36,085 bases of DNA from Oscillospiraceae bacterium (GTDB lineage: Bacteria > Bacillota > Clostridia > Oscillospirales > CAG-272), in NCBI GenBank assembly GCA_015063585.1, contig SVTW01000017.1, positions 1 through 36,085 on the forward strand. Direction: 5' to 3'. Shown here in pieces: positions 9,924-12,624 of this stretch. The stretch's first letter is position 1; each line of letters opens with the position of its first letter. The position numbers were made by a program, and so were the translations under genes. Under the pieces are notes generated by a model. That model was not told where the DNA came from, ran no database searches, and was given only the letters and a program-made list of their open reading frames with translations.

Positions 9924-9966
9924 TACCTCCCAATTATAAAAAAGCAGAGAAAGGAGAGAAACCGCG

Positions 9967-12546
9967 ATGAAAAAGAAGCTGACAGTTGGAATTTTGGCAC
10001 ACGTGGACGCGGGAAAGACCACACTCTCCGAGGCTCTGCTTTTTCGTTCGGGCATGATCCGCAAGCTCGGGCGGGTCGATCACAAAAACACCTTTCTCGA
10101 TACCAACGCAGTGGAACGGGAACGCGGCATTACGATCTTTTCCAAGCAAGCGCGCTTCTCGACGGTCTCCTGCGATTGGATCCTGCTCGACACACCCGGT
10201 CACGTAGATTTCTCGGCGGAAGCCGAACGAACGCTTGCGCTTCTTGACTATGCGATCCTTGTGGTAAGCGCATCGGACGGCGTGCAAAGCCACACCCGCA
10301 CGATCTGGCAATTGCTCGAATTCTACCGCATACCCACCTTTCTTTTTGTCAACAAGACCGATCTCGCCATCAAGCCCTCCGAAACGCTTTTACAGGAGCT
10401 CGCCGCGTCTCTCTCTCCGCAATGCGTCGCTTTTTTTGAAAACGATACCAAAGCGGAATTGGACGAAAAGCTGGCACTGATCCAGGAAGATTTTTTGGAA
10501 ACCGTTTCGCTGGGGGAGGAGATCTCGGATGCCGAGATTGCCGATCGGATCCTGCGCCGAAAGCTCTTTCCCTGCCTGTTTGGGTCGGCACTTCGCATGC
10601 AGGGGATCGATTTTCTGCTCGATTCGCTCGACCGCCTCACCTGTGCGCCGATTTATCCCGAAGCCCCCTTTGGCGCGAAGGTCTACAAGATCGCGCGGCA
10701 AGGAAACACGCGGCTCACGTATATGAAGATCACAAGCGGGCACCTTTCTGCCCGTGACGAGGTCCGATATCTCGCAACCGACCGGCAGCGTTTTTGTGAA
10801 AAGGTTGCGCAGATCCGTCTCTATTCGGGTGAAAAATTTGAACAGACCGATTCGGTCAGCGCGGGCGAGATCTGTGCCGTGATCGGGCTTTCCGCCACCT
10901 ATGCGGGGCAAGGTCTGGGATGCGAGAGCGATTCCTGCCGCCCTGTTCTTGAGCCCGTGCTCTCCTATCGCATCAAGCTCCCCGCCGATTGCGATCCGCG
11001 CGTATTTTTCCCGCGCCTGAAGGAGCTTGAGGAGGAGGATCCCTCTCTGCATCTCTATTGGAACGAGGAGCTTCGCCAAATTGAGGTGCGCTTGATGGGA
11101 GAGGTACAGACAGAACTGCTTCGCCGCATGATCCGCGACCGCTTTTCGGTTGATTGCGAATTGGATGCGGGTAAGATCCTTTACAAAGAAAAAATCGCGT
11201 CCCGTACGGTCGGGATCGGACATTTTGAGCCCTTACGCCATTACGCCGAGGTTCAGCTTCTGATGGAACCGCTCCCCAAGGGAACGGGGCTTTTGTTCGA
11301 TTCGCGCCTCTCGGAAAATCAGCTTGACCGCAATTGGCAACGGCTGATCCTATCCGTCCTGTATGAAAAATCGCATCGCGGCATTTTGATCGGTGCGGCG
11401 CTGACCGACACCAAGATCACGCTTGTTGCGGGCAAAGCACACCTCAAGCACACAGAAGGAGGCGATTTCCGCGAGGCAACCCTCCGCGCCGTTCGGCAGG
11501 GGTTGATGACGGCAGGCTGCACGCTGCTGGAGCCCTATTACCGCTTTCGAATGGAGCTGCCGAGCCGTCACGTAGGACACGCCATGAGCGATCTGCAGGT
11601 CCGCTGTGCCGAGTTTGAGGTCGAATCGGCAACCGAGGATATTACCGTTATATGCGGCAGAGCCCCCGCATCAAAACTGCACGGGTATACACGGGAGCTG
11701 ATCGCCTACACACATGGCGAAGGACGGCTGTTCTGCACCTCTGACGGCTTTGAGCCCTGCCCCGAGCCGGATACGATCGTTGCCGAAGCCCAATACGATC
11801 CCGAAGCCGATATTGAAAATCCACCGCACTCGGTCTTTTGCGCACACGGCGCGGGCTTTACCGTTCCGTGGAATGAGGTCGAGCACTATAAGCACCTGGA
11901 CGCGGGAATCAATCTGTCCGCCGCCGAGCAATCGCTCCTGCCCCGCCCTGCAAGGCTCGCGAAACAATACAATTTGAGCGACGAGGAGCTGGAGGCGATC
12001 ATGCTCCGCGAGTTTGGTCCGATCAAGCGCCGCCGTTACAGTGAGCCGCGCGTGCAATCGGCGCAAAAGAGCAAGCACACTCCCCATCACAAAGCGTCCA
12101 AGCTCCACCGTAAGCTCATGATTGTAGACGGTTATAATCTCATTTATGCATGGGAAAACCTCAAAGAGATTGCCGATTTCAGCCTTGAAAAGGCACGCGA
12201 AACGCTGATGGATATTTTGAGCAACTACGTGGCATATACCAAAACCGAGGTCGTGCTCGTATTCGACGCTTACCGCGTAAAGGAAGGCATTGGCTCAGAC
12301 TTTACACACGACGGCTATCGCGTGGTCTACACCAAGGAAAACCAAACGGCGGACGCCTTTATCGAAAAAATGATGTTTGAGCTCGGTCCCGATTACGACG
12401 TCAGGGTTGTAACGGGAGACCGACTGCTCCAATTTTCCGCAGTACACTCGGGAATTCTCCGCACCACCGCGAAGGAATTTCTCGCGGAGGTCACGCTGAT
12501 CGGAAACGAGATCGAAAGCTTTATCCGAAAGCTGGCGGAAGAATAA
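9967..12546 (+). CDS. TetM-like translational GTPase fused to Rae1/YacP-type NYN nuclease
   Basis: An 859-residue two-part protein. Residues 1 to about 640 are an elongation-factor-G-like GTPase of the Tet(M)/Tet(O) ribosomal-protection group, with G1 AHVDAGKTT (11-19), G2 RGITI (53-57), G3 DTPGHVDF (75-82) and G4 NKTD (129-132). A basic linker (about 675-715) follows. Residues 716-859 match the NYN/PIN-like nuclease Rae1 (YacP) of Bacillus, with VDGYNLIYAW, VLVFDAY, YTKENQTADAFIEK and VVTGDRLLQ, and candidate acidic catalytic residues D721, D767, D796 and D818. Rae1 cleaves mRNA in the ribosomal A site, the place where Tet(M) binds. The fusion suggests GTPase-directed delivery of a nuclease to ribosomes. 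ATG 9967 follows AAGGAGAG. Tetracycline protection cannot be concluded. Confidence 0.88.
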   Translation: MKKKLTVGILAHVDAGKTTLSEALLFRSGMIRKLGRVDHKNTFLDTNAVERERGITIFSKQARFSTVSCDWILLDTPGHVDFSAEAERTLALLDYAILVVSASDGVQSHTRTIWQLLEFYRIPTFLFVNKTDLAIKPSETLLQELAASLSPQCVAFFENDTKAELDEKLALIQEDFLETVSLGEEISDAEIADRILRRKLFPCLFGSALRMQGIDFLLDSLDRLTCAPIYPEAPFGAKVYKIARQGNTRLTYMKITSGHLSARDEVRYLATDRQRFCEKVAQIRLYSGEKFEQTDSVSAGEICAVIGLSATYAGQGLGCESDSCRPVLEPVLSYRIKLPADCDPRVFFPRLKELEEEDPSLHLYWNEELRQIEVRLMGEVQTELLRRMIRDRFSVDCELDAGKILYKEKIASRTVGIGHFEPLRHYAEVQLLMEPLPKGTGLLFDSRLSENQLDRNWQRLILSVLYEKSHRGILIGAALTDTKITLVAGKAHLKHTEGGDFREATLRAVRQGLMTAGCTLLEPYYRFRMELPSRHVGHAMSDLQVRCAEFEVESATEDITVICGRAPASKLHGYTRELIAYTHGEGRLFCTSDGFEPCPEPDTIVAEAQYDPEADIENPPHSVFCAHGAGFTVPWNEVEHYKHLDAGINLSAAEQSLLPRPARLAKQYNLSDEELEAIMLREFGPIKRRRYSEPRVQSAQKSKHTPHHKASKLHRKLMIVDGYNLIYAWENLKEIADFSLEKARETLMDILSNYVAYTKTEVVLVFDAYRVKEGIGSDFTHDGYRVVYTKENQTADAFIEKMMFELGPDYDVRVVTGDRLLQFSAVHSGILRTTAKEFLAEVTLIGNEIESFIRKLAEE

Positions 12547-12551
12547 AAAAC

Positions 12552-12587
12552 GGGAGACCGCAGCCTTTGTGCCGCATTCGGTCTCCC
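12552..12587. terminator. bidirectional intrinsic terminator
   Basis: GGGAGACCG (12552-12560) pairs with CGGTCTCCC (12579-12587). AAAAAA precedes and ATTTTTT follows, so both strands have a T run after the stem. It lies between the convergent GTPase and exonuclease genes. Confidence 0.9.
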
Positions 12588-12624
12588 ATTTTTTATATAT
12601 TACGTTGCAGTCGGCGCGGCAAGA

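What the first reader, a model, noticed from the sequence alone, without database searches (positions are those of the whole stretch)
9967..12546. Translational GTPase fused to a Rae1-type mRNA nuclease
The protein joins a Tet(M)-like, EF-G-related GTPase to a C-terminal domain closely resembling Rae1 (YacP), which in Bacillus cuts mRNA in the ribosomal A site. Both parts act at the same ribosomal position, so the fusion implies that GTP-dependent ribosome binding delivers the nuclease. It could serve stalled-ribosome rescue, translation-coupled mRNA decay or drug response. All G motifs and four candidate acidic catalytic residues (D721, D767, D796, D818) are intact.
Basis: partly seen in the sequence, partly recalled or inferred. 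Interest (0 to 1): 0.8.

Follow-up and report, generated by a model that had tools for sequence, protein, structure and literature searches.

The report
Ribosome GTPase fused to mRNA-cutting enzyme
A bacterium with close relatives in animal guts makes one protein that joins a ribosome-binding motor, related to tetracycline-protection proteins, to an RNA-cutting enzyme of the Rae1 kind; the pairing had been noticed before but I found no test of it, and it probably cuts the message on stuck ribosomes.

Summary
Window 9967-12546 (+) encodes 859 aa: an EF-G/Tet-type GTPase (1-645), a 71-aa linker and a Rae1/YacP NYN nuclease domain (Pfam 1.9e-39). It is no assembly accident: 47 other genomes gave the same architecture when translated. 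The four aspartates are invariant in every set aligned. Trees of either half put all 48 fused proteins on one side of one branch, fitting a single fusion; 17 unfused GTPase relatives end at residue 642-645. None of the 28 fusion-bearing genomes in a sample of 398 has a second NYN_YacP match. Tet tests fail: below NCBI's cut-offs, and lysine where TetM has the drug-site proline. Half of the fusions (24 of 48), this one included, lack the C-terminal segment that all 24 stand-alone Rae1 copies examined keep, as if the GTPase had taken over recruitment. Most likely it is a ribosome-targeted mRNA nuclease for stalled ribosomes; ribosome binding, GTP use and cleavage are inferred. The fusion was printed in 2015 (ten Clostridiales species, Atkinson), so this is a new member of a known, apparently uncharacterised kind.

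The parts
9967..12546 (+). GTPase-linker-NYN fusion protein gene, 859 aa
   Evidence: full-length relatives
9950..9956 (+). Shine-Dalgarno-like AAAGGAG, 10 nt before the ATG
   Evidence: read by eye
9976..10638 (+). G domain (residues 4-224), G motifs intact
   Evidence: Pfam GTP_EFTU 1.5e-47; invariant columns
10696..11766 (+). EF-G-type domains II-V (residues 244-600)
   Evidence: Pfam EF-G_D2 (just below cut-off), EFG_III, EFG_IV, EFG_C
11431..11472 (+). domain IV tip loop GKAHLKHTEGGDFR (489-502), family pattern HxKHTxGGDFR; K494 stands where TetM has Pro509
11767..11901 (+). conserved C-terminal tail of the GTPase (601-645); unfused relatives end here
11902..12114 (+). linker (646-716), 71 aa, variable in sequence and length across the family, with a short conserved motif around E674
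12118..12531 (+). NYN_YacP (Rae1-type) nuclease domain (718-855), without the C-terminal segment of stand-alone Rae1
12127..12129 (+). active-site Asp721
12265..12267 (+). active-site Asp767
12352..12354 (+). active-site Asp796
12418..12420 (+). active-site Asp818
12552..12595 (+). terminator-like hairpin (8-bp stem GGGAGACC/GGTCTCCC) and T run after the stop
   Evidence: read by eye; not reported by the scan, whose loop limit is 8

Best explanation
A ribosome-targeted endoribonuclease for stalled or slowed ribosomes. Step 1 (inferred from fold): the EF-G-type GTPase, with GTP, binds the A-site side of the ribosome; its own domain IV tip (HxKHTxGGDFR), unlike that of Tet or EF-G, reads or clears the decoding site. 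Step 2 (inferred): GTP hydrolysis releases domain IV, and the tether of about 70 residues keeps the NYN domain close, so that it enters the emptied A site (or that of a neighbouring, collided ribosome) and cuts the mRNA there, as Rae1 does in B. subtilis. Step 3 (from literature): the cut leaves an empty A site for trans-translation. Shown here: the architecture, intact GTP and nuclease sites, a branching order that fits one fusion event, no second Rae1 in fusion-bearing genomes, and loss of Rae1's own C-terminal segment in half of the fusions.
For: Both halves are complete and conserved; the four Asp are invariant in 48 of 48 fused and 24 of 24 stand-alone domains. Fused proteins lie on one side of one branch in the GTPase tree (48 fused, 17 unfused, 7 Tet/EF-G-like rows; SH-aLRT 100) and in the NYN tree (48 fused, 24 stand-alone; 100/99). 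Distances of the two parts correlate (r 0.62, 0 of 1000 permutations, 44 proteins). In the phylum sample (398 genomes, asked for at 90% completeness or more, plus the window's) each of 28 fusion-bearing genomes has a single NYN_YacP match; 191 others have a match and no fusion found. [quoted passage not shown] Tet-type GTPases bind the A site (passage, PMC8161019). The 24 stand-alone domains have 62-69 residues from the last Asp to the end; 24 of 48 fused ones have 37-48 (window 42), the other 24 have 51-71.
Against: Domain IV and Rae1 would compete for one A site. Distribution is patchy: 43 of 147 genomes of the order have any NYN_YacP match, and one genus holds a genome with it (G131) and one without (G077, 98% complete), so it is not a core factor. 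MutS2 matches occur in 147 of 147 of the same genomes (140 above cut-off), so there is no complementarity with that collision nuclease. No conserved neighbours. Half of the fused nucleases keep a longer tail. The lack of a second Rae1 may be shared ancestry rather than replacement, and correlated divergence follows from common descent alone.
Confidence: 0.5

Rival explanations
1. A drug-resistance protein: a Tet-type ribosome protector whose added RNase helps resistance, as Atkinson (2015) suggested, or clears mRNA from drug-stalled ribosomes.
For: Nearest solved structures of the GTPase part are TetO and TetM; an Agathobacter rectalis fusion is annotated as tetracycline resistance; the 2015 proposal. 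[quoted passage not shown]
Against: Far below NCBI's Tet cut-offs (398 against 775), where a true Tet protein from fusion-bearing genome G110 passes (819 against 775; 1284.7 against 1100). At the Pro509 position none of 48 fused and 17 unfused proteins has proline (K in 44 and 15). No consistent leader attenuator: 14 of 55 fusion genes with at least 100 nt upstream have a terminator-like hairpin against 24 of 244 control genes (p 0.003), but 12 of the 14 follow a co-directional gene, as that gene's own terminator would; without the spacing filter it was 16 of 95 against 28 of 495.
Confidence: 0.17
2. The nuclease acts on rRNA or tRNA (maturation or decay) and the GTPase only brings it to the ribosome.
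For: YacP-like NYN domains were proposed to act in rRNA and tRNA maturation (Anantharaman and Aravind 2006, as cited in PMC4342817).
Against: The characterised relative cuts mRNA (passages); the patchy distribution does not suit a maturation enzyme.
Confidence: 0.13
3. The two parts are only loosely coupled: an ordinary Rae1 activity and an ordinary GTPase activity in one chain, the fusion serving expression at equal amounts.
For: Long, poorly conserved linker (58-116 aa); the unfused GTPase and a stand-alone Rae1 occur together in 4 of 6 phylum-sample genomes with the unfused form.
Against: None of 17 unfused proteins falls inside the fused group; 24 of 48 fused nucleases lack the C-terminal segment kept by 24 of 24 stand-alone ones.
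Confidence: 0.15

Closest known systems
Rae1/YacP of Bacillus subtilis (PDB 5mq8, 5mq9)
   Same: NYN domain with all four Asp and the DGYN motif aligned over 142 residues
   Different: Rae1 is a free protein of about 170 aa (length recalled); here it is a C-terminal domain, in this window without Rae1's last segment, which by my numbering includes the site of the R166P change found among loss-of-function suppressors (passage)
Tet(M)/Tet(O) ribosomal protection proteins
   Same: G domain and EF-G-type domains in the same order; 234-245 bits over about 590 residues
   Different: Domain IV tip HxKHTxGGDFR instead of the Tet loop with Pro509; own tail 601-645; below curated Tet cut-offs
Clostridial Tet-NYN fusions noted by Atkinson 2015 (PMC4342817)
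   Same: Same domain architecture as described there for ten Clostridiales species (passages seen)
   Different: No experiment on them in the passages seen; called Tet proteins there; the sequences (additional file 8) were not seen
MutS2/SmrB collision nucleases
   Same: An NTPase ribosome-binder joined to or working with a nuclease (comparison recalled)
   Different: Unrelated folds (recalled); MutS2 is present alongside in the same genomes

Membership tests
Rae1/YacP NYN nucleases | NYN_YacP profile match above curated cut-off | tested here: met
   135.7 bits against 24.6
Rae1/YacP NYN nucleases | Four active-site aspartates | tested here: met
   D721, D767, D796, D818 align with YacP 7, 53, 81, 104; 48 of 48 fused and 24 of 24 stand-alone
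Rae1/YacP NYN nucleases | C-terminal segment of the stand-alone proteins | tested here: not met
   42 residues from D818 to the end against 62-69 in 24 of 24 stand-alone; 24 of 48 fused are short. So: a Rae1-type domain, not a whole Rae1
Rae1/YacP NYN nucleases | Translation-dependent mRNA cleavage in the A site | not testable with these tools
   needs biochemistry
EF-G-family translational GTPases | G motifs and domains II-V | tested here: met
   Pfam (D2 just below cut-off); A11, V13, D14, G16-L20, R53-T56, D75-H79, K130, D132 and G206 invariant in 44 fused proteins
Tet ribosomal protection proteins | Score above the NCBIfam Tet cut-offs | tested here: not met
   397.9 against 775 for tet_protect, and below cut-off for Otr(A), M/W, Q and M models; control L116 passes
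Tet ribosomal protection proteins | Proline at TetM 509 in the drug site (passage, PMC8161019) | tested here: not met
   K494 at that position
Tet ribosomal protection proteins | Confers tetracycline resistance | not testable with these tools
   needs a deletion strain
Anti-phage defence proteins | Match to a PADLOC model | tested here: not met
   0 families at E up to 0.001 for P0001

The most novel reading that the evidence does not exclude
A single-chain no-go-decay enzyme: an EF-G-type GTPase that no longer moves tRNA or displaces drugs but checks or clears the A site of a stalled ribosome and, on GTP hydrolysis, hands the site to its own tethered mRNA nuclease, replacing Rae1's self-recruitment. 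It would be a bacterial counterpart, in one polypeptide, of Hbs1/Dom34 plus a nuclease (comparison recalled).
Probability: 0.3. Interest if true: 0.8.

Novelty: new member of a known kind. Interest (0 to 1): 0.5.

Why it matters
How Rae1-type nucleases find the right ribosome is, as far as I know, open. A fusion that ties the nuclease to a ribosome-binding GTPase, found across many Clostridia families, with unfused relatives for comparison, makes this testable. It also suggests that a protein annotated as tetracycline resistance in a gut commensal record may not be one.

Tried and rejected
Conserved neighbourhood: apart from the fusion itself no protein cluster recurs in more than 5 of 35 loci. 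Complementarity with MutS2: none. Drug-type leader attenuator: a higher rate of upstream terminator-like hairpins than in control genes, mostly next to co-directional upstream genes. Defence system: no PADLOC match. Assembly chimera: rejected. Tetracycline phenotype of L. salivarius as a test of the unfused relative: inconclusive. Rae1 primary papers (PMC5412759, PMC6152456, PMC12067863, 10.1261/rna.079692.123), a collision paper (PMC9041291) and the Tet(O) structure paper (PMC3576927) were not held; what I say of them beyond the cited passages is recalled.

Full report
What is there. The gene at 9967-12546 (+) encodes 859 residues. Residues 4-600 carry the G domain and EF-G-type domains II-V, residues 718-855 a YacP-like NYN domain; all but domain II are above the Pfam cut-offs. 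The nearest solved structures by sequence are TetO/TetM for the first part and B. subtilis YacP for the second. In the window the gene lies 43 nt after an aldo/keto reductase gene with ferredoxin-type domains, has its own ribosome-binding site and a terminator-like hairpin behind the stop. In its own genome (2.24 Mb, 86.5% complete) it holds the only NYN_YacP match.

How widespread. In the window's order 43 of 147 genomes have a NYN_YacP match. In 42 it lies in a frame of 833 aa or more, 26 of which (the window's included) I translated and found fused at full length; in one (G107) the frame runs off the contig end and cannot be judged. No clear stand-alone copy was seen there. In the phylum sample 219 of 398 genomes have a match, 4 of them below the family's cut-off (genomes of at least 90% completeness were asked for, the window's added). 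By a search with residues 472-717, 28 of the 398 carry the fusion; 25 of these were translated, the other 3 judged by frame length. Each of the 28 has exactly one NYN_YacP match. The other 191 have a match and no fusion found; the match list was cut, and the non-fused matches visible in it lie in frames of 169-302 aa. In family f80 one genome has the fusion (G361) and another a stand-alone copy (G198), which fits replacement. A scan of named genomes kept its best 80 of at least 590 loci; 79 hold the intact fusion and one is cut by a contig end. By their titles 79 of the 80 are Clostridia; one title (L190) names Thermoflexaceae of the Chloroflexota, which I did not check further. Of plasmid records, two match over at least 80% of the query: Monoglobus pectinilyticus and Agathobacter rectalis.

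One fusion. A tree of the GTPase part (72 rows: 48 fused, 17 unfused, 7 Tet/EF-G-like; one weak relative, L062_OTH, dropped beforehand, and L113 and L115 moved by me to the Tet-like group because they match only to residue 601-607) puts all fused proteins on one side of a branch with SH-aLRT 100, and the unfused ones outside it when rooted on an EF-G-like row (a quick tree, long branches flagged among the outgroups and in L112). The tree of the NYN part (48 fused, 24 stand-alone) gives the same split, 100/99. The two parts diverge in step (r 0.62, 0 of 1000 permutations, 44 proteins), as common descent would also give. The 17 unfused relatives, in 16 genomes, end at query residue 642-645. None of the 10 genomes of the order that hold them has a NYN_YacP match; of 6 in the phylum sample 4 have a stand-alone one. 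A fragment of 220 aa in G508, a genome that also has the fusion, was set aside.

Not a Tet protein by test. The best NCBIfam model is tet_protect at 398 bits against a cut-off of 775; a fused relative, L080, scores 396 and an unfused one, L119, 430. L116, from a genome that also carries the fusion (G110), passes at 819 and, for the M/W model, at 1285 against 1100. In TetM, Pro509 sits in the tetracycline site at C1054 (passage of PMC8161019); here the aligned residue is K494, in a loop HxKHTxGGDFR shared by fused and unfused members. At that position K is found in 44 of 48 fused (the others V, S, Q, R) and 15 of 17 unfused (the others E), never P; T496 is invariant in all 65, D500 is D in 46 of 48 and 17 of 17. 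In the named set K494, H495, T496 and D500 are invariant in 80 of 80 rows.

The nuclease. All four aspartates are kept without exception in the three sets. Stand-alone Rae1 proteins end in a further segment that 24 of 48 fused ones lack, this one included. In B. subtilis an R166P change, which falls in that segment by my numbering, was found among suppressors that the authors read as loss of function (passage of PMC6613710). I infer that the segment may serve recruitment and that the GTPase can replace it; the other 24 fused proteins keep 51-71 residues there, so the loss is not general.

The linker. It is 58-116 residues long (median 74.5, 48 proteins) and poorly conserved except for a short motif around E674 that my pattern found in 30 of 48; some of the others carry a second version of it. 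A flexible tether suits sequential use of one A site better than rigid double occupancy (inference; no model could be made).

How it most likely works. Rae1 and Tet-type GTPases both work in the A site (passages), so they should not be there together. The best reading is that the GTPase selects and then vacates the A site and its tethered nuclease follows. Ribosome binding, GTP use, cleavage and their order are inferred. MutS2 is present beside it, so it does not replace that factor; patchy presence suggests a conditional role.

Novelty. Atkinson (2015, passages seen) reported that Tet proteins of ten Clostridiales species had acquired a YacP-like NYN domain and suggested an RNase-based resistance. 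In the listings of searches of the held open-access library I saw no later work on the fusion; several listings were partial (20 of 49, 20 of 48, 15 of 176, 10 of 20, 6 of 11), most papers were not opened, and subscription papers are mostly missing, the Rae1 distribution paper of 2018 among those not held.

Noticed in passing
L113, L114, L115 (genomes G087, G069, G015): Another Tet-like GTPase group with HTHPLDF in the domain IV loop instead of the Tet loop; L113 scores 489 bits against the tet_protect cut-off of 775. Possibly a further non-resistance subfamily.
   Followed up: partly
L105:2780-4678 and L106:2673-4571: Identical unfused GTPase rows from two genomes placed in different families (f1, f3), which means recent transfer or contamination.
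   Followed up: no
L220 (NC_007930.1 226540-228474): Ligilactobacillus salivarius plasmid pMP118 carries an unfused relative, annotated as Tet, near a plasmid copy of the gene for ribosomal protein S14.
   Followed up: partly
MT835563.1 5421-7964 and MT835514.1 15279-17804: Two 'Bacteriophage sp.' records from human faeces encode the fusion at 45-47% identity; they are unannotated and may be bacterial or prophage pieces.
   Followed up: no
window 9967-11898: PHROG 6880 ('translation elongation factor') matches residues 2-644 with 434 bits, so relatives of the GTPase part occur in phage records.
   Followed up: no
window 11983-12033: Linker motif EELEAIMLREFGPIKRR, conserved in an otherwise variable tether, with a second version in some other members; a possible docking helix.
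   Followed up: partly
L218 (Agathobacter rectalis plasmid, NZ_CP143948.1): The fusion gene lies beside a BrnT-type toxin and CopG-type antitoxin pair on the opposite strand.
   Followed up: no
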